Source of the DNA: Yponomeuta sedellus
Lineage: Eukaryota; Arthropoda; Insecta; Lepidoptera; Yponomeutidae
Length of the DNA stretch: 64,000 nucleotides
Assembly (NCBI GenBank): GCA_934045075.1
Contig: OW203734.1
Coordinates: 6,950,516-7,014,515 of the forward strand
Direction of reading: 5' to 3'
Shown here: in pieces, positions 53,301 through 60,542 of the stretch
Layout of the letters: each line of letters opens with the position of its first letter
Position numbering within the stretch: position 1 is the stretch's first letter
Made by a program: the position numbers and the translations under genes
Notes under the pieces: model-generated
Databases searched by the model: none
Told to the model about the DNA's origin: nothing
What the model saw: the letters and a program-made list of their open reading frames with translations, nothing else

Positions 53301-56300
53301 TAGCAAAAACTAAACTTAATCTCGTATAAATTTCTAGTGATTTCTGTTTGAATCTCTGAGTGTTTTGCCGTTGTGTGTTGCGCTGACCGCGGCCCCGTCG
53401 CCTTGCAGACGACCTGGTTTCCGAGCGCGAAAAGAGCAAACTCCTGCAAGAGGAAATGGAGGCCACACTCCACGACATCCAGAACATGTGAACACGCCCC
53501 TCCCCATCACGGCCGCGTCACTAATCGATATCGATACACGTACTACACTAGACGCCGCTCAACTGCCTTGCAAACTACAGTATTAAACGATCAAAACGAC
53601 AACGTTTTTAGGGAAACAACAGAAAATAAATATTCTAACTGCAATTAATGTCTGACTTTTTAGAAAACTATTTAGTTTTCAGTGAAAATAAAATTCTTTG
53701 TAGTTCTGATCGTCAAATTTAGAGACAGTTGATAGCATCTTTTTATCTTGACGCAGTTGGTGTTTTGTCTATTATAGTACTTTGTATCGGTAAAGTACGA
53801 CTGGCGCGCTTTCCCAACACTAAAACTGTCAATTCAATGTTGCCATCTGATCAGATACAAAAATACTCGTTTGGGAAAGTGTACTAGTTCCGATAACGAT
53901 ATTTGAGATATTTAAAGAGGATTTGATCGTAATTTTAAAAATATCGTTTTACAAAGTAACCTAGAGTAGAGATTAGTGGCGCGTCTAGGCAACTAGCTGT
54001 TACTAGTTCATTAGTATTGCCAGCTGCTTTTTAAATGTATTTAAAACAAGCAAATTAAGAACGCATTAAGATCAGCCGTTTGACGTGTTTGGCCGTTCGC
54101 TACTATAACACTGCCATTGTGCAATCATTTGTTTTGCTACACATTTAATTTTATCCTCGATATAGTACTGTTGAGTGTATAATGCCTCATTTTTGTTTAA
54201 ATAGTCATTACGTTTTTTTTTTATATTATGTGAGAGTCTGTGTAAAACGAGTTTTAGAGGTCGCACCGAATGAACGGCTTTTCTGGCACTTAGGTGTAAG
54301 TGAAAATGATGACATTCCATAAAATTGGGACCATAAACTTATTACTTTTATAGCAGTAACATGCATTTTTGCACTGGCTACAGTTTCACTTTAATTCTGG
54401 TGAGCAAATTAATGTAAAAACTCGTTTCCGATTCTTGGTCAATAGTGCATTTATAGAAATATGGCTTGCACCAGATTGAATCATTAGTAACTCGTATTTA
54501 CTTAATATTAGAGAGAGATAAGATATTTTCTATTTAATTCAAACCGAGTGATCGTAACTCGTAAATAATGATATTTATACAAATAATTCTTACTATTGAA
54601 GTATTTGATATTTCTTTATATTTGTGTTTCGAGTATGTTTCTTGTGTCATAAGTAAAATCGAGTTTGTTATTATTTATTTATACTAATCGATGAGTAAAT
54701 GTCGAGCATTTCATTATCGAGTAGTGGCAATACGGTAGCGTAGACTATAGCGGGGGTAGAGCTGGCAATGAATTAATACAAGGCGGGAGCGCTGCCGCCT
54801 TTGTGCGTCTGTTACTTTATGGCACACCAGAGCGCTTTGCTAATGATAGAAAACCAATTTATTGTAAAACGCAATCGTTTAAAACATCGAGGGAAGTCCG
54901 TCTTTATGAAATTAAATGAAAAGATCAATGATAGTTAAGTTCGTGAGAAAATTTAAATTAATGAATTTAAGAGTATTCTAACACAAGTGTTTATAAATAT
55001 ATATTGTCTTTATTTTTAGTTGTTGTGTGTGTTATTTTTTTTTTCAACCACTAACGTGAATGCCCCTTCCTAAATTCCTAATCCTCTATTCGCTAACGAT
55101 CAATCTTACGAATTCTATCAGCTATAAAAAATACCTATCAACGACCATCATCGAACAATCACTGTACAAAAATCATCAAAACCATTGCAACCTGAACGCA
55201 AACCGAATGCACTCGTGAGAATCAGATCACCGGGCAACGTCGACCTGAGGACTATCCGCCATGTTGTTCCGAGCACGGGGCATGAGAGAACCCTGTCCGA
55301 CCTACCCATAGCGTAGCCACGCATGAGAACCCGACACGAGAAGAAGTTAATAACGCATGACCACAACACCGTCCAGAGGCGGACTCTGACTGGCCCTGTG
55401 GCCCCCAGATGACCTGATCGGCGAGATCGAGCGCTTCAACGACATCGGAGACGATATCGACGACTCCTTCATGGAACTTATTCCGGGCGTTGACCCTACC
55501 TTCAGACAAGCCGAGGTCATTCGCAAAGAGTACGAGAGACTGCACCCAAGGATCCCCACGCCACCGCCACCAGAGCCTGAGCCTGAGCCGGAGCCCCCGG
55601 CGCCCGTCGTCGAAGCCCCGGTTGAGGGGGCCCCGCCGGTGGAAGGTGCCCCTCCCGCCGAGGGCGCGCCGCCGGCAGAGGGCGCCGTCCCGCCTGTAGA
55701 AGGAGCAGTTCCCGTGGAAGGGGCTGCTCCCCCTGTAGAGGGTGCCCCAGCAGTTCCTGTAGAAGGAGCGGTACCGCCGGCTGAAGGAGCCGCACCGGTA
55801 GAGGGCGCTGTGCCAGCGGCGCCACTTGCTGAGGGAGCCGTGCCACCGGTGGAAGGTGCCCCAGCGGCTGCACCCGTTGAGGGCGCTCCTGCAGCCGCCC
55901 CGGTAGAGGGAGCTCCGGCCGCCGCGCCTGTCGAGGGTGCTGCCCCTCCTGCAGAGGGGGCTCCGGCCGCCGCCCCTGTAGAGGGTGCGCCGGCTACCGC
56001 CCCCGCTGACCCTGCAGCTGTGGCGGCTGCTCCCGTGGCCCCAGTGGAAGGCGCCCCAGAGGCGGCTCCAGCTGACCCTGCGGCCGTCCCCGCTGCCGCT
56101 CCAGCTGCCGCCCCAGCCGACCCGGCAGCCGCCACCGCAGCCCCTGCAGCTGCTCCTGCGGCGGAGGCAGCCCCCGCGGCCGCCCCGGCCGCAGCCGCCG
56201 CCCCTGCGCCCGCCGTTGAAGCCGCGCCTGCACCAGCACCGGAAGCCGCTGCGCCGCCATCTTAGGTTTTGCTTTACGAAAAAAAACATGATAAACGAAA

Positions 56301-59300: not shown

Positions 59301-59405
59301 AATTACTAGACTCGATAAAATAATTATGTAAGTAGTTTCACTTTCAATATCTACCGATTTTACCAAGCTATACCTACAACAGGACCACTGGACAATCCCC
59401 CCACT

Positions 59406-59439
<34 letters not shown>

Positions 59440-60542
59440 CACCCAGGAGAAACCCCAATTACGGGTACCACCGGCTCGGGGGAGCACAGTGGTTATGTCG
59501 GACTCCCCGCCCTGAAAAGGGCGGTATACCGACTAAAACTCCTGGGGTGTTCCTCCGCACCGCAAAGGACGGGGCCACGGGAACGCTTGCGCACACTTCC
59601 GCGACCCCGTCTGCGGGCGCCCTTTCGGGCACTCCTTCGGCGGCGCTTCTGCCCCGTCGGTGCTCGACGACGGGGCTAGAAAGCGCCGCATCTCTTCGTT
59701 GGAGCGCATAGGGGCCAAGTGCGTATGATCTTGGCCCCCATACGCCCCAACGCGCCGCCCCCTCCATCCCATCGCAAGCCGGTCGATGAGACGGGGAGGA
59801 CGGCGCACCTCCTCGTTGAGGCGCGTGGGGGCCCAAGCGTCCCGGTCCCCACACGCCCCACACGTGAGGCCCGTCACGTCGCCCACCAGCACTTCTCTGA
59901 AAGCAGAGAAGGCGGTGAGCGACCGCGCGGGCCCCCTCCGTGCCAGAAGGCACCCTCGGAACACGCAAGGGCGCCTTCCGGCCCGCCGTGATGGACGCGG
60001 AGAGTCCCCCGACCCTCCGCGTCCCAGCGGCCACTCTGGTCCGACTGGTACGAGGCGCGCGCGCTTCCGCGCAGCGGCGCCCCCCCCAGTCGGTCCTTCA
60101 TTCGGTTGGTCGCCTGGGTCCCGCTCCACAAAGTGAAACAGGGCCCACGCGACCCCTCCCGCCAGATTTTTCGCCGCTGGCCAGCAAGATCCCATAAAGA
60201 GAAGTTACTGACCAGCGCCCAGGGTGCACCGGCCCTTGCCACTTACCCTTCCTACAGGTTCAAGATGAATCAGTAGGAACGGAAGCGGAAGGGCACACGG
60301 GAAGGTAATCTGGCATCGCACCCCTGGCATCGCACCCCTTGAGTAACTAACCTAACCTAACCTAACCTAACCTTTTTTTTTTTTTTTTTTCACCCAGACT
60401 CCCTACTCTAACCTGACCCATCCCGGTTGCACCTACTAACAATAGCCAACTTTCCACAGACGAAGTTATTGAGGAGCGCAGTAAGTACAAAGCTATTGCC
60501 GAAGAAGTGGATCAGACCTTTGCAGACCTCTCTGGTTACTAG
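20190..60542 (+). CDS. Tm1: Tropomyosin-1 gene (whole locus, alternative exons)
   Basis: Exons spread over about 40 kb encode tropomyosin, the actin-filament coiled coil that controls myosin access in muscle and stabilises filaments elsewhere. The canonical muscle path (25542-25655, 28650-28775, 40525-40658, one exon 4, one exon 5, 49048-49123, one exon 7, 52278-52347, 53409-53491) totals 855 nt, exactly 284 aa plus stop. Exon sizes 114, 126, 134, 118, 71, 76, 63 and 70 are the classic tropomyosin sizes. Three starts, two exon 4s, two exon 5s, three exon 7s and five ends allow up to 180 combinations if unlinked. Cytoplasmic start 1b gives 252 aa with the shortest ends; the long start gives 405 aa; the Pro-Ala end gives 542 aa in the muscle form. 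Confidence 0.95.
23220..23264. repeat. Perfect inverted repeat, 21-bp arms, 3-base loop
   Basis: GCAAACAGAGAAACGTAACC (23221-23240) is followed after ACA by its exact reverse complement at 23244-23263, with a further G/C pair outside. Confidence 0.92.
24128..24432. mobile_element. 305-bp MITE, copy 1
   Basis: Terminal inverted repeat AGTGCTTAGTGCGAGTT (24128) and AACTCGCACTAAGCACT (to 24432), flanked on both sides by CAG. A second copy of identical length lies at 27538-27842, with about seven differences by eye. A 3-bp target duplication would fit PIF/Harbinger, CACTA or Zator elements; no transposase is present to decide. Confidence 0.85.
24722..24958 (-). repeat. 5S-rRNA-like SINE, head plus tail, internally deleted (minus)
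   Basis: On the minus strand it starts CGTGGCCTAGTCGAACC, contains AACAACAGGCGCGGTCAGG and GGATGGGTGACC, and ends at GGGTTGATATCGA. The start agrees with the copy at 58019, which fixes the 5' end of the family. Confidence 0.7.
25521..25655 (+). CDS. Tm1: Tm1 muscle first coding exon (1a)
   Basis: Coding begins at ATG 25542 in the context GCCGCCACCATGG and reads [20 protein letters not shown], the near-invariant N-terminus of long muscle tropomyosins that overlaps head-to-tail with the next dimer on actin. It codes for 38 residues and ends in phase 0 at GAGAAG before donor GTATGC. Acceptor CCCCCTACCAG at 25520; an alternative AG at 25504 would lengthen the 5' UTR only. Confidence 0.96.
26672..26905. 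repeat. Dispersed arthropod repeat
   Basis: Contains TTACTAGCTGTGTCC, CCATACCAAATTTTATTAAA and ACAAACTTTCGCCTTTATAA, an ordered set of strings I recognise from very many arthropod genomes. There is no second copy in the window, so the class (LINE 3' end or Helitron) is not determined. Confidence 0.4.
27150..27180. repeat. 31-bp perfect palindrome
   Basis: ATATCCGATTCTATC and GATAGAATCGGATAT flank a single central base. The short motif also occurs, not palindromic, at 11906-11925. Confidence 0.9.
27213..27960 (-). mobile_element. Non-LTR retrotransposon fragment interrupted by a MITE
   Basis: Minus-strand translation right of the MITE (27843-27960) gives [19 protein letters not shown] and [10 protein letters not shown]; left of it (27213-27537) degenerate DLKWRWA and [16 protein letters not shown] text continues to CCCACTGCTGGGCATAGGCC. 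These are the C-terminal part of a LINE reverse-transcriptase protein, with stops and shifts. The MITE at 27538-27842 splits it; removing it and one CGG restores GATATGCCCGGCATGG. 5' truncated and dead. Confidence 0.72.
27538..27842. mobile_element. 305-bp MITE, copy 2, nested in a LINE
   Basis: Same element as 24128-24432 and exactly the same length. Its flanks are CGG on both sides, the duplicated target in the LINE. Same orientation as copy 1. Confidence 0.88.
28320..28440. repeat. SINE-tail fragment with a 17-bp-arm inverted repeat
   Basis: GCTGGTCCCAAAACAAAATA is family C tail-like text. CTGAGGCCATTTGTACA at 28389 faces its exact reverse complement at 28421-28437. Confidence 0.6.
28650..28775 (+). 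CDS. Tm1: Tm1 exon 2 (muscle isoforms)
   Basis: Acceptor TTTCCCAAACAG, donor GTAAGT, phase 0 at both ends, 126 nt. Encodes [20 protein letters not shown] and onward to KEKALQN (residues 39-80), a heptad-repeat coiled coil. Skipped when the gene starts at the downstream first exons. Confidence 0.95.
29692..30016. mobile_element. Foldback element with about 130-bp arms
   Basis: GCAGCTGACTCAGCAGTATG at the left and CATACTGCTGAGTCAGCTGC at the right are the outer ends of long, almost identical arms that meet in a centre made of repeated TAAGGTATTTAT. The arm sequence is related to 25400-25465 (AGCTGACTCAGCATTACACT), so it arose from a dispersed repeat. Confidence 0.8.
30501..30980. mobile_element. 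480-bp MITE with TA target sites
   Basis: TACCCTATTTATAGAAGCTT at 30501 and AAGCTTCAATAAATAGGGTA at 30961-30980 belong to inverted repeats of about 36 bp; both arms continue into GAGACAAAAGGTAAAC and its reverse. TA lies outside each end, as for Tc1/mariner-type MITEs. No transposase inside. Confidence 0.82.
31690..32041 (+). promoter_or_regulatory. Tm1: Putative promoter/5' UTR of the long Tm1 first exon
   Basis: The sequence becomes GC-rich just before the ATG at 32042. An alternative promoter is required because no acceptor in phase lies in front of the open frame. No core element could be named. Confidence 0.35.
32042..32644 (+). CDS. Tm1: Tm1 alternative long first exon (Tm1-I/C-like N-terminus)
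   Basis: Open from ATG 32042 through 201 codons to AGG before donor GTAACG at 32645. It ends in phase 0, so it fits exon 3 (40525), giving ALRR then [11 protein letters not shown]. Residues 1-45 are basic and Pro/His-rich; 45-150 are Ser/Asp/Glu-rich and look disordered; 155-201 hold RENRRRRR and a helix-like [18 protein letters not shown] leading into the coiled coil. Drosophila Tm1 has an atypical isoform (Tm1-I/C) with a long unique N-terminus that binds kinesin-1 and serves oskar mRNA transport; this exon has its place and layout. I cannot align the sequences from memory, so homology is inference. Confidence 0.62.
32645..35129. other. Intron between alternative first exons
   Basis: Contains an (ATT)n run at about 33636-33658 next to a LINE-like 3' text (TACTTTATTGCACC). 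No recognised exon. Confidence 0.4.
35130..35385 (+). promoter_or_regulatory. Tm1: Putative promoter/5' UTR of cytoplasmic Tm1
   Basis: A GC-rich island (GCGACCGCGCCCTTCGAGTC, CCATTTTCTTCGCCGGC) sits directly upstream of start 1b, unlike the AT-rich surroundings. A TATA-less housekeeping-type promoter is plausible. Confidence 0.4.
35386..35529 (+). CDS. Tm1: Tm1 cytoplasmic first coding exon (1b)
   Basis: ATG at 35386 after GTGCAAA. Encodes 48 residues, [20 protein letters not shown] onward to EIMRREE, and ends in phase 0 before donor GTAAGA. Short non-muscle tropomyosins use such an exon in place of 1a plus 2. Joined to exon 3 it gives a 252-residue protein with the shortest last exons. It lacks the acetylatable MDAIKKKM start, so its end-to-end overlap differs from muscle forms. 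Confidence 0.93.
35530..40020. other. Intron upstream of exon 3
   Basis: Long intron. 35650-36150 is GC-richer with an open minus-strand frame I could not identify. A family D end lies at 39535-39585. Otherwise AT-rich with no recognised exon. Confidence 0.4.
40028..40455 (+). repeat. SINE-tail hairpin followed by a full family A SINE
   Basis: 40028-40170: ATGCACTAACCCGTGCTAAG and CCTATTTAGAGGC face two forward tail copies and CTTAGCACGGGTTAGTGCAT, a long hairpin. 40190-40455: a nearly complete family A SINE (CATGTGGGTACAGTGATATC, CCCATTGGCTCAATTGGTAG, GCGGGTTCGAATCCCGG, tail). It stands about 70 bp before Tm1 exon 3. Confidence 0.8.
40525..40658 (+). CDS. Tm1: Tm1 exon 3 (constant)
   Basis: Acceptor TTTCCTCCTGCAG, donor GTGAGC, 134 nt. 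Encodes [20 protein letters not shown] onward to [10 protein letters not shown]; ends with CG of an Arg codon that either exon 4 completes. It is the common junction for all three starts. Confidence 0.96.
40659..42560. other. Tm1 intron 3
   Basis: The first part has three degenerate tandem units (GTTGACGTTAGGAC, AATCGAAGGGTT and related text) of about 100 bp at 40660-40900. A small TIR element lies at 41423-41588. Confidence 0.45.
41423..41588. mobile_element. Small MITE-like element with imperfect TIRs
   Basis: TATTGCACAGCCAGAAAAAA near 41448 faces TTTTTTCTGGTTGTGCAATA near 41553, within longer imperfect arms that end TATTTAGAGAG and CTCTAAATA. 166 bp, no coding sequence. Confidence 0.6.
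42561..42678 (+). CDS. Tm1: Tm1 exon 4a (alternative)
   Basis: Acceptor CACTAACACAG, donor GTGAAC, 118 nt. Encodes (R)[19 protein letters not shown], then [20 protein letters not shown]. Pairs with 4b: same length and phases. Because 118 is not a multiple of three, including both shifts the frame, which enforces exclusive use. Confidence 0.94.
44099..44216 (+). CDS. Tm1: Tm1 exon 4b (alternative)
   Basis: Acceptor TTGTTGGGTCCAG, 118 nt. Encodes (R)[19 protein letters not shown], then [20 protein letters not shown]. The donor must be GAG|GTCTTT to keep length and phase; this is a poor match to GTRAGT, so the exon may need a splicing enhancer. If unspliced, the frame runs on to a stop near 44334. 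Confidence 0.93.
44217..45878. other. Tm1 intron 4
   Basis: AT-rich; I see no additional exon 4 or 5 copy and no clear repeat. Confidence 0.35.
45879..45949 (+). CDS. Tm1: Tm1 exon 5a (alternative)
   Basis: Acceptor GGTCCCGCCAG, donor GTAGGT, 71 nt. Encodes [20 protein letters not shown] then SGE plus two bases of Ser. Confidence 0.95.
47174..47210 (+). promoter_or_regulatory. UG-rich tract before exon 5b
   Basis: GTGTGAGTGTTGTGTGTGTA and further TG repeats end 22 bases before the exon 5b acceptor, which itself has no polypyrimidine tract (GCCGGCTAAAG). UG-repeat RNA is the known target of CELF/Bruno proteins and TDP-43-type proteins. Confidence 0.55.
47233..47303 (+). CDS. Tm1: Tm1 exon 5b (alternative)
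   Basis: Acceptor CCGGCTAAAG, donor GTGAGT, 71 nt. Encodes [20 protein letters not shown] then QSD plus AG of Ser. Same size and phases as 5a, replacing A/V by V/M and A by Q in heptads. Confidence 0.94.
47304..49047. other. Tm1 intron 5
   Basis: AT-rich with no exon or clear repeat recognised. Confidence 0.35.
49048..49123 (+). CDS. Tm1: Tm1 exon 6 (constant)
   Basis: Acceptor ACCAAATTCCAG, donor GTATGT, 76 nt. Completes Ser and encodes [20 protein letters not shown] then VSEEK, the most conserved stretch of tropomyosins. Confidence 0.96.
49613..49675 (+). CDS. Tm1: Tm1 exon 7a (alternative)
   Basis: Acceptor TTTATACAG, donor GTGTGA, 63 nt, phase 0. Encodes [21 protein letters not shown], the sequence typical of muscle tropomyosin. 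Confidence 0.95.
50162..50224 (+). CDS. Tm1: Tm1 exon 7b (alternative)
   Basis: Acceptor CATGACCGCAG, donor GTAACG, 63 nt, phase 0. Encodes [21 protein letters not shown]. Same register as 7a. Confidence 0.93.
50225..51386. other. Tm1 intron between exons 7b and 7c
   Basis: AT-rich intronic DNA with no further exon 7 copy or clear repeat seen. Confidence 0.35.
51387..51449 (+). CDS. Tm1: Tm1 exon 7c (alternative)
   Basis: 63 nt, phase 0, donor GTAAGA. Encodes [21 protein letters not shown], a third, divergent version of the segment. The acceptor CCTACTATGTGGCTAG has almost no polypyrimidine tract, suggesting tissue-limited use. Confidence 0.88.
51450..52277. other. Tm1 intron 7
   Basis: AT-rich intronic DNA; no exon or repeat recognised. 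Confidence 0.35.
52278..52347 (+). CDS. Tm1: Tm1 exon 8 (constant)
   Basis: Acceptor CACGCAATTCCAG, donor GTGAGA, 70 nt. Encodes [20 protein letters not shown] then RLE plus G of the next Asp/Glu codon. All five last exons continue with AC or AT to give Asp. Confidence 0.96.
53194..53245. repeat. Perfect inverted repeat, 19-bp arms
   Basis: TTTACATCAAACTTTACAT (53194-53212) faces ATGTAAAGTTTGATGTAAA (53227-53245), about 160 bp before the first last exon. Confidence 0.9.
53409..53491 (+). CDS. Tm1: Tm1 last exon 9a
   Basis: Acceptor CGTCGCCTTGCAG. Encodes (D)[20 protein letters not shown] then HDIQNM and TGA at 53489-53491. This is a standard 27-residue C-terminus and gives 284 residues in the muscle form. 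AATAAA at 53625-53630 and 53687-53692 can end the mRNA. Confidence 0.95.
53625..53692 (+). terminator. Polyadenylation signals for exon 9a
   Basis: Two AATAAA hexamers at 53625 and 53687, 135-200 bp after the stop. Confidence 0.5.
53700..55400. other. Intron/3' UTR between last exons 9a and 9b
   Basis: AT-rich; a U- and GU-rich stretch at 54995-55045 could be a downstream poly(A) element. No exon recognised. Confidence 0.35.
55409..56265 (+). CDS. Tm1: Tm1 last exon 9b: heavy tropomyosin (troponin-H) Pro-Ala extension
   Basis: Acceptor TGTGGCCCCCAG, open for 857 nt to TAG at 56263-56265. It starts (D)[20 protein letters not shown] then [20 protein letters not shown], so it replaces the usual C-terminus and adds over 250 residues. 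After [10 protein letters not shown] the chain is about 18 PVEGA/PAEGA-type units, then Ala/Pro text with APADPAA, ending EAAAPPS. Insect indirect flight muscle makes such heavy tropomyosins from Tm1; the tail is thought to lie off the thin filament and bind glutathione S-transferase-2. Gives 542 residues with the muscle start. GC content is extreme; long minus-strand frames here are artefacts of that. Confidence 0.93.
56334..56339 (+). terminator. Polyadenylation signal for exon 9b
   Basis: AATAAA 69 bp after the stop codon. Confidence 0.55.
56558..56691 (+). CDS. Tm1: Tm1 last exon 9c: Cys-rich C-terminus
   Basis: Acceptor CGGTCTTCGCAG. Encodes (D)[20 protein letters not shown] then [19 protein letters not shown] and TCCH, TGA at 56689-56691. 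The first part follows the pattern of the other last exons (D-L then I-G-E/D-LD-AF); the tail of about 18 residues ends CDRCTCCH, with four Cys and one His. Gives 301 residues in the muscle form. Codon composition and the good acceptor support use. AATAAA at 56907. I do not recall such a tail in known tropomyosins. Confidence 0.82.
56907..56912 (+). terminator. Polyadenylation signal for exon 9c
   Basis: AATAAA about 215 bp after the stop. Confidence 0.4.
57189..57274 (+). CDS. Tm1: Tm1 last exon 9d
   Basis: Acceptor AAATGTCTAG (weak pyrimidine tract). Encodes (D)[20 protein letters not shown] then VELILKE, TAA at 57272-57274; 285 residues in the muscle form. Its [13 protein letters not shown] matches the start of exon 9b, showing that 9b is a derived, extended version of this type of end. 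Confidence 0.92.
57434..57830 (-). other. Open frame of about 130 codons, possible mobile-element remnant
   Basis: Minus-strand frame without stops, including [20 protein letters not shown] and [19 protein letters not shown]. No ATG at a sensible place and no family recognised. AT-rich composition allows chance frames, so this may be nothing. Confidence 0.2.
57464..57469 (+). terminator. Polyadenylation signal for exon 9d
   Basis: AATAAA about 190 bp after the stop. Confidence 0.45.
57900..57985. repeat. LINE 3'-end-like fragment
   Basis: AGTCCACTGCTGGACATAGA followed by GCGCCGCGTTGCGCTATCAT resembles the 3' ends of lepidopteran LINEs (compare CCCACTGCTGGGCATAGG at 5040 and 27236). Confidence 0.45.
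58019..58375 (+). repeat. 5S-rRNA-like SINE, full-length copy
   Basis: Starts CGTGGCCTAGGCGAACCGAG. The head holds AATCACTTGGTTAAGCAAC, AGGCGCGGTCAG and GGATGGGTGAGCG, matching insect 5S rRNA GATCACCGAAATTAAGCAGC, GGGCGCGGT and GATGGGGGACC. From AAGCA to GATGGG is 28 bases in both. The body (GCCATGTCGGAGGCCTTATG) and tail (CCCAGCAGTGGGGACATACA) are shared by five other partial copies. Confidence 0.75.
58392..58427. repeat. Perfect inverted repeat, 13-bp arms
   Basis: GATAAGGAAGTTT (58392) faces AAACTTCCTTATC (58415-58427). Confidence 0.85.
58787..58824. repeat. Perfect inverted repeat, 17-bp arms, 4-base loop
   Basis: AGAGTTGCTGACTCTAC and GTAGAGTCAGCAACTCT around CTAA. Confidence 0.9.
59409..60397 (-). 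mobile_element. Telomere-type (TRAS/SART-like) retrotransposon insertion carrying (TTAGG)n
   Basis: On the minus strand, from 5' to 3': CTGGGTG, A18, about five AGGTT units, TTACTCAAGGGGTGCGATGC, about 900 bp of GC-rich sequence, GGGGTTTCTCCTGGGTG, A31. The same CTGGGTG-poly(A) ends both the leading fragment and the element. Flanks are ACTCCCT on both sides (59403-59409 and 60398-60404), a target duplication. GC-rich frames on the minus strand (to 191 and 220 codons) include [20 protein letters not shown] before the tail. R1-clade elements TRAS and SART live in lepidopteran (TTAGG)n telomeres; the class is inferred from the telomeric repeats and tail layout. Too short for a complete 6-8 kb element. 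Confidence 0.72.
60347..60373. repeat. Telomeric repeat tract (CCTAA)n
   Basis: About five exact units of CTAAC in phase, immediately followed by T18. TTAGG is the insect telomere repeat; here it is interstitial and inside a transposon insertion. Confidence 0.85.
60460..60542 (+). CDS. Tm1: Tm1 last exon 9e (cytoplasmic-type end)
   Basis: Acceptor AACTTTCCACAG, only 62 bp downstream of the retrotransposon insertion. Encodes (D)[20 protein letters not shown] then ADLSGY, TAG at 60540-60542. Gives 284 residues with the muscle start, 252 with 1b. No canonical AATAAA seen soon after. Within it CGCAGTAAGT looks like a cryptic donor. Confidence 0.92.

What the first reader, a model, noticed from the sequence alone, without database searches (positions are those of the whole stretch)
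59403..60404. Readthrough copy of a telomere-targeted retrotransposon, with (TTAGG)n inside, in the last Tm1 intron
Seen: ACTCCCT occurs on both sides of a block that, read on the minus strand, is CTGGGTG, poly(A), (AGGTT)n, about 900 bp GC-rich sequence, CTGGGTG, poly(A). The repeated CTGGGTG-poly(A) on both sides of the telomeric units means that the RNA began in the tail of one element, ran through telomeric repeats, and continued into a second copy of the same family. Known: TRAS and SART (R1 clade) insert into lepidopteran TTAGG telomeres in tandem. Inference: a telomeric readthrough transcript was reverse transcribed into an internal, off-target gene site, carrying telomeric DNA 60 bp from a coding exon. 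This is a natural record of telomere-derived 5' transduction.
Basis: partly seen in the sequence, partly recalled or inferred. Interest (0 to 1): 0.88.

Follow-up and report, generated by a model that had tools for sequence, protein, structure and literature searches.

The report
Jumping element copied with neighbour's tail
A short mobile element related to moth telomere-targeting retrotransposons jumped into an intron of a muscle-protein gene carrying a scrap of its old neighbourhood, and that scrap points to a repeat array inside the same chromosome rather than to a chromosome end.

Summary
The anatomy is confirmed. Minus strand, 60404-59403: 7-bp target duplication, CTGGGTG, A18, (GGTTA)5G, TTACTCAA, an 885-bp GC-rich element, A31, target duplication. 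The element is a short family without a detected coding domain (698 exact 5' ends). Its last 201 bp match, at 98.5%, a two-ORF SART-like retrotransposon of the same genome. It is enriched at chromosome ends in SART orientation, but 80 of 97 mapped copies are interior.

The read-through idea is right; a telomeric source is not supported. The 21-nt junction TTACTCAAGGGGTGCGATGCC occurs three times in the assembly: in the window copy and twice in a tandem array about 573 kb away on the same chromosome. The insert's first 108 nt match that array exactly. There TTACTCAA is host target DNA, and the GGTTA units lie in a dispersed host repeat that has (GGTTA)2-4 in 20 of 20 fetched copies.

Best account: RNA running from one copy's tail through the host spacer into the next copy was reverse transcribed by SART-type machinery at a T|AGG site in a tropomyosin intron. 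The body of the present array copy differs, so array turnover, an allele or a template switch is also needed.

The parts
59403..59409 (-). Target-site duplication, 3' side of the insert (AGGGAGT in sense; one A shared with the poly(A))
59409..59439 (-). Poly(A) tail of the inserted copy, A31
59440..60324 (-). 885-bp SART-tailed element, full length; four differences from the majority of sampled copies
59440..59640 (-). Last 201 bp, shared at 98.5% with a two-ORF SART-like element on C31
60325..60338 (-). Extra 14-bp copy of the element's 5' end (GGGGTGCGATGCCA), also present at both array junctions
60339..60346 (-). TTACTCAA: host DNA of the C14:6.43 Mb array site, carried as a 5' tag
60347..60372 (-). 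(GGTTA)5G, the spacer of the source array, telomere-like but most simply from a dispersed host repeat
60373..60390 (-). A18, poly(A) of the upstream array copy
60391..60397 (-). CTGGGTG, last 7 nt of the upstream array copy; 5' end of the insert
60398..60404 (-). Target-site duplication, 5' side of the insert (AGGGAGT in sense)
60460..60542 (+). Downstream exon, C-terminal end of a tropomyosin, with stop codon; the insert is antisense to it

Best explanation
The insert is a 5'-transduced copy of a short SART-tailed retroposon. An RNA that ran from the tail of one copy (CTGGGTG-A18), through an intercopy spacer of host DNA ((GGTTA)5G-TTACTCAA), into the next copy was reverse transcribed by SART-type proteins acting in trans, and was inserted by target-primed reverse transcription at a T|AGG site in the last intron of a tropomyosin gene, with a 7-bp target duplication. 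The spacer identifies the source as an interstitial tandem array about 573 kb away on the same chromosome (C14:6.434-6.439 Mb), or an allele of it, not a chromosome end. Shown by sequence: the anatomy, the junction found nowhere else in the assembly, the shared SART tail and a shared off-target site. Inferred: read-through transcription, mobilisation in trans, and where the transcript began.
For: The junction TTACTCAAGGGGTGCGATGCC has 3 exact occurrences in the assembly, the window copy and two in the C14 array, control 0. The insert's first 108 nt occur exactly in the array, with the same A18, (GGTTA)5 and doubled element start as the A/B1 junction; 29 other family loci match only the first 27 nt. 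The array's outer 3' junction is A17-GGTTAGTTACTCAA-CCACGG, so TTACTCAA is host DNA there. In the window the second tail, A31, is followed directly by the outer target duplication. The target begins AGG, as in 9 of 12 examined insertions without telomere runs. The last 201 bp match a SART-like element with two ORFs, endonuclease and RT at 98.5%, and a copy of that type sits at the same point of the same host repeat as short copies L011 and L026.
Against: The body of the window copy is not that of the present array copy B1: 3 differences in the first 500 nt of the insert, then many between 533 and 767 and one at 831. So either the array has changed since, or the donor was another allele, or reverse transcription switched templates. 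The 7-bp duplication is shorter than that of most examined insertions. No RNA data, no second individual and no related genome were available. [quoted passage not shown]
Confidence: 0.82

Rival explanations
1. One reading: a read-through RNA from a chromosome-end array carried telomeric DNA into the intron.
For: The family does form tandem arrays with GGTTA spacers at chromosome ends, tails outward. The array has 4-5 GGTTA units per spacer against 2-4 in the 20 fetched host-repeat copies, so telomeric units could have come in with the founder of the C14 array.
Against: TTACTCAA and the exact spacer occur only in the interstitial array and the window; TTACTCAA is host sequence there; the host repeat has its own GGTTA units. 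The array lies at 6.43 Mb of a 23.77 Mb contig.
Confidence: 0.06
2. Template switch: reverse transcription began on the RNA of one family member and switched, near the 5' end, to a read-through RNA of the C14 array.
For: The body of the window copy differs from array copy B1 from insert position 533 on, and it shares two variants with L005 and L007, while the first 108 nt are identical to the array.
Against: Needs an extra step. Array copies are visibly mosaic, so turnover explains the same facts. A read-through RNA of the array is needed here as well.
Confidence: 0.25
3. RNA end joining: a jump from the element's 5' end onto the 3' end of a separate RNA ending in telomere repeats, without a contiguous read-through RNA.
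For: R1-clade reverse transcriptases are known to jump templates (recalled, not tested).
Against: The same junction, including TTACTCAA and the doubled 14-bp element start, exists as DNA in the array.
Confidence: 0.02
4. DNA-level move: an array fragment was duplicated into the intron by recombination or gene conversion.
For: Both loci are on one chromosome, about 573 kb apart.
Against: An A31 tail directly followed by a target duplication, and a start 7 bp before the upstream tail's poly(A), are marks of retrotransposition. In the array, B1's A21 is followed by the next element, not by intron sequence.
Confidence: 0.03

Closest known systems
SART1 (R1-clade telomere-specific LINE of Bombyx; PMC7265360, passages read)
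   Same: Insertion between T and A of TTAGG, tail followed by (A)GGTTAGG, long poly(A); SART1Bm proteins move RNAs that carry the SART 3' UTR in trans. Here the last 201 bp are shared with a local SART-like element.
   Different: 885 bp, no coding domain found; 80 of 97 mapped copies interior; interior sites need little more than AGG, against at least three TTAGG repeats in the SART1Bm assay.
5' transduction by LINE-type elements (L1/SVA; recalled)
   Same: Sequence upstream of the copied element is carried along and identifies the source locus.
   Different: The carried piece is a neighbouring copy's tail plus the spacer of a tandem array, in an R1-clade system.
HeT-A of Drosophila (PMC4700185, passages read)
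   Same: Tandem elements; a transcript that begins in the upstream neighbour's 3' end would give such a tag.
   Different: HeT-A has a promoter in its 3' UTR and lies at chromosome ends; here no promoter evidence, source array interstitial, insertion endonuclease-like with a target duplication.
LINE-tail-sharing SINEs
   Same: Short, no coding domain found, 3' tail shared with a LINE, poly(A), target duplications, hundreds of copies.
   Different: No tRNA-type or other head RNA was found. The first 192 bp match the region 5' of ORF1 of another SART-like element on C24 at 93.8%, so it looks like a composite of LINE ends.

Membership tests
SART-type retroelement (by 3' end and target) | 3' end recognised by SART proteins (shared 3' sequence) | tested here: met
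   Last 201 bp 98.5% identical to a SART-like element on C31. Recognition itself not testable.
SART-type retroelement (by 3' end and target) | Insertion T|A in TTAGG with 3' end toward the chromosome end | tested here: met
   17 of 17 copies within 150 kb of ends on C1-C5 have the 3' end outward; junctions GGTT|element and A(n)|GGTTAGG.
SART-type retroelement (by 3' end and target) | Strict telomere specificity | tested here: not met
   80 of 97 mapped copies interior.
Autonomous R1-clade LINE | ORF1 and ORF2 with endonuclease and RT in the element | tested here: not met
   No Pfam match in the two longest minus-strand frames of the insert. The C31 SART-like element has CCHC, endonuclease and RT.
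5' transduction | Upstream source sequence inside the target duplications, contiguous with the element | tested here: met
   Tag between TSD and element; first 108 nt exact in the array.
5' transduction | Source locus with tag and element body matching | tested here: inconclusive
   Tag matches exactly; the body of B1 diverges from position 533.
Telomere-derived transduction | Tag matches a chromosome-end locus | tested here: not met
   Junction found only at C14:6.436 and 6.438 Mb and in the window.
HeT-A-like transcription from the neighbour's 3' end | Transcription start in the 3' end of the upstream copy | not testable with these tools
   No RNA data; the insert's start at CTGGGTG may equally be a reverse-transcription stop.
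SINE with Pol III head | tRNA, 5S or 7SL-related 5' part | tested here: not met
   No tRNA; no Rfam family at its gathering score.

The most novel reading that the evidence does not exclude
Tandem copies of this SART parasite are transcribed from the 3' tail of the upstream copy (HeT-A style), so that the insert's CTGGGTG start is a transcription start site; arrays, terminal or interstitial, would then be preferred source units of new copies.
Probability: 0.1. Interest if true: 0.75.

Novelty: new variant of a known kind. Interest (0 to 1): 0.5.

Why it matters
It is a traceable read-through retrotransposition in a telomere-targeting lineage: an 8-bp host tag plus spacer points to the source locus. 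It warns that interstitial (TTAGG)n beside a telomere-type retroelement need not come from a telomere. It also shows a SART-like element and a short tail-sharing element at the same off-target site, which bears on how strict target choice is in R1-clade elements and on how their parasites spread.

Tried and rejected
Rfam, ARAGORN and Pfam on the insert gave nothing at or above thresholds. Two scans of viral contigs for element patterns found nothing. Eight paper searches (one search listed none) showed no paper on a short SART-tail family or on 5' transduction in TRAS/SART; this is judged from titles and abstract starts, in an open-licence library only. Telomeric read-through was rejected as told above. 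A search for siblings with one of the window copy's C>T sites gave 7 hits: the window copy, four opened and two unopened. Of the four, none shows the TTACTCAA tag: two (L042, L044) have an intact element start without it, in two (L041, L043) no intact start was found. CTGGGTG-A10 not preceded by C occurs 12 times in the genome, the window copy included, 1 in the reversed control, so this exact truncation is rare; the other 11 were not opened. An orthologous empty site could not be tested, since the tool says the genome has no relatives held. The patterns CATCGYAGGAAGGTTAG, TTAGTTACTCAACCAC and GGTTAGTTACTCAA did not complete, so the fraction of host-repeat copies with two or more GGTTA units is unknown.

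Full report
Observation. The insert is as described and can be read base by base. On the minus strand it runs: target duplication AGGGAGT, CTGGGTG, A18, (GGTTA)5G, TTACTCAA, a 14-bp repeat of the element's start, the 885-bp GC-rich element ending in CTGGGTG, A31, target duplication. The downstream exon begins 55 bp beyond the duplication and resembles the C-terminal end of tropomyosin, weakly because it is only 26 residues.

What the element is. A search of the window's own assembly (657.5 Mb, 57 contigs) gave 83 matches, with only 40 of 2,025 candidates scored, so a lower bound; most full-length ones are 99-100% identical, some 89-93%. The 30 loci returned gave 42 extracts with intact ends, which are 37 distinct copies because some loci overlap; 33 of 37 have the same length. 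The exact 21-bp 5' end occurs 698 times, 0 in the reversed control. The listing shows the first 100 places. Of the 97 on C1-C5, 17 lie within 150 kb of a chromosome end (expected 1.1; 15-fold), all 17 with the 3' end outward, and 80 are interior (37 plus, 43 minus) (3 listed places on C6 were left out). At the ends copies sit in GGTTA repeats as GGTT|element-A(n)|GGTTAGG, which fits the SART site, between T and A of TTAGG (PMC7265360, passages). Interior copies have target duplications: of 12 examined (the window and the 11 of 30 loci without a telomere run), 9 begin AGG directly at the tail, one begins TGG, and two match only from three or four bases in. No coding domain was found.

Who moves it. 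Beside one array on C31 lies a SART-like element with ORF1 (796 aa, CCHC knuckle) and ORF2 (1,051-aa frame; endonuclease in its first 308 codons, RT in the rest). The last 201 bp of the short element match its 3' end at 98.5%, tail included. The short element's first 192 bp match the region before ORF1 of another element on C24 at 93.8%; that ORF1 is 47% identical to the C31 ORF1 over 235 aligned residues. A copy of the C31 type in the interior of C9 (93.5% over 229 bp at the 5' end, 97.3% over 1,406 bp at the 3' end; the middle was not fetched) starts after GGATTGTAAGACAGT and ends CTGGGTG-A52-GGATTGTAAGACAGT. This is the same point of the same dispersed repeat that short copies L011, L026 and L049 use. 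Published work shows SART1Bm proteins mobilising in trans an RNA with the SART 3' UTR (PMC7265360, passages). Mobilisation in trans here is well motivated but inferred.

Where the tag comes from. The junction TTACTCAAGGGGTGCGATGCC has 3 exact occurrences, at C14:6436503, C14:6437984 and the window copy at C14:7010841, all on one strand. The first two are in a tandem array, C14:6434522 to about 6438957, with five element starts and five tails by exact motif. The spacer between array copies A and B1 is A18-(GGTTA)5G-TTACTCAA followed by the doubled element start; in the next such spacer it is A17-(GGTTA)4G. The insert's first 108 nt occur exactly in the array; the other 29 family loci match only the first 27 nt. 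The array's outer 3' junction is A17-GGTTAGTTACTCAA-CCACGGAGG. The closed-up host site aligns at 91% and 86% with the same dispersed repeat at L026 and L011, so TTACTCAA is local host DNA, by inference duplicated as a target sequence when a copy inserted there. That dispersed repeat has 78 genomic matches to CATCGYAGGAAGGTTAGGTTAG, the array's own 5' flank included. I fetched 20 of the 78 (the first 19 listed and one chosen because it has CATCGT): 20 of 20 have (GGTTA)2-4, and in about 400 bp 18 of 20 show no motif of the short or SART-like element, L049 and L063 being the exceptions. The GGTTA units of the array, and hence of the window insert, are thus most simply part of a dispersed repeat that happens to carry the telomere unit. 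That the array has 4-5 units per spacer rather than 2-4 leaves room for slippage or for units brought in by the first insertion; this was not resolved.

What does not fit. The window copy's body is not that of array copy B1: 3 differences in the first 500 nt of the insert, then many between 533 and 767 and one at 831, where B1 carries a divergent variant. Two of the window copy's four departures from the majority are shared with L005 and L007. Either the array has turned over since (its copies are visibly mosaic), or an allele was the donor, or reverse transcription switched between two RNAs. In each case an RNA spanning A's tail, the spacer and the start of the next copy is required. The 7-bp duplication is short for the family, and SART1Bm in cells needed at least three TTAGG repeats (PMC7265360, passages).

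Verdict. Read-through retrotransposition: supported. Telomeric source: not supported; an interstitial array on the same chromosome is. The mechanism is of a known kind, 5' transduction with target-primed reverse transcription. The variant is that the transduced piece is a neighbour's tail plus an array spacer, in a SART-tail parasite with relaxed targeting. Whether the transcript started in the neighbour's tail, as in HeT-A (PMC4700185, passages), cannot be told without RNA.

Noticed in passing
L002, G000:C31:1990263-1994157: Three tandem copies with GGTTA spacers about 2 Mb inside a 10.3 Mb contig, with a 5' flank like that of chromosome-end arrays: perhaps a former chromosome end or an assembly join.
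   Followed up: no
L020, G000:C27:12609378-12613262: Two tandem copies separated by the target duplication GGTGTTCCCAGGTG: a second copy inserted at the same site, a small interstitial array in the making.
   Followed up: partly
L033, G000:C14:23715001-23724500: Copies in the opposite (TRAS-like) orientation share a central block (about 80% over 288 bp) with the SART-tailed element but have a different tail: modules appear shared between the two kinds of parasite.
   Followed up: partly
L005 (C25:1.22 Mb) and L007 (C14:23.73 Mb): An interior copy and a chromosome-end copy show the same four differences from the majority: a likely recent pair of source and daughter or of sisters.
   Followed up: no
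L011, L026, L049, L063/L065: One point of a dispersed host repeat (GGATTG..AAGACAG) is hit by three short copies and by a SART-like copy: an off-target hotspot.
   Followed up: partly
window 55252-56289: Long overlapping frames on both strands in a GC-rich, tandemly repetitive proline/alanine-rich stretch (plus-strand frame 55471-56265), probably an exon of the same gene region.
   Followed up: no
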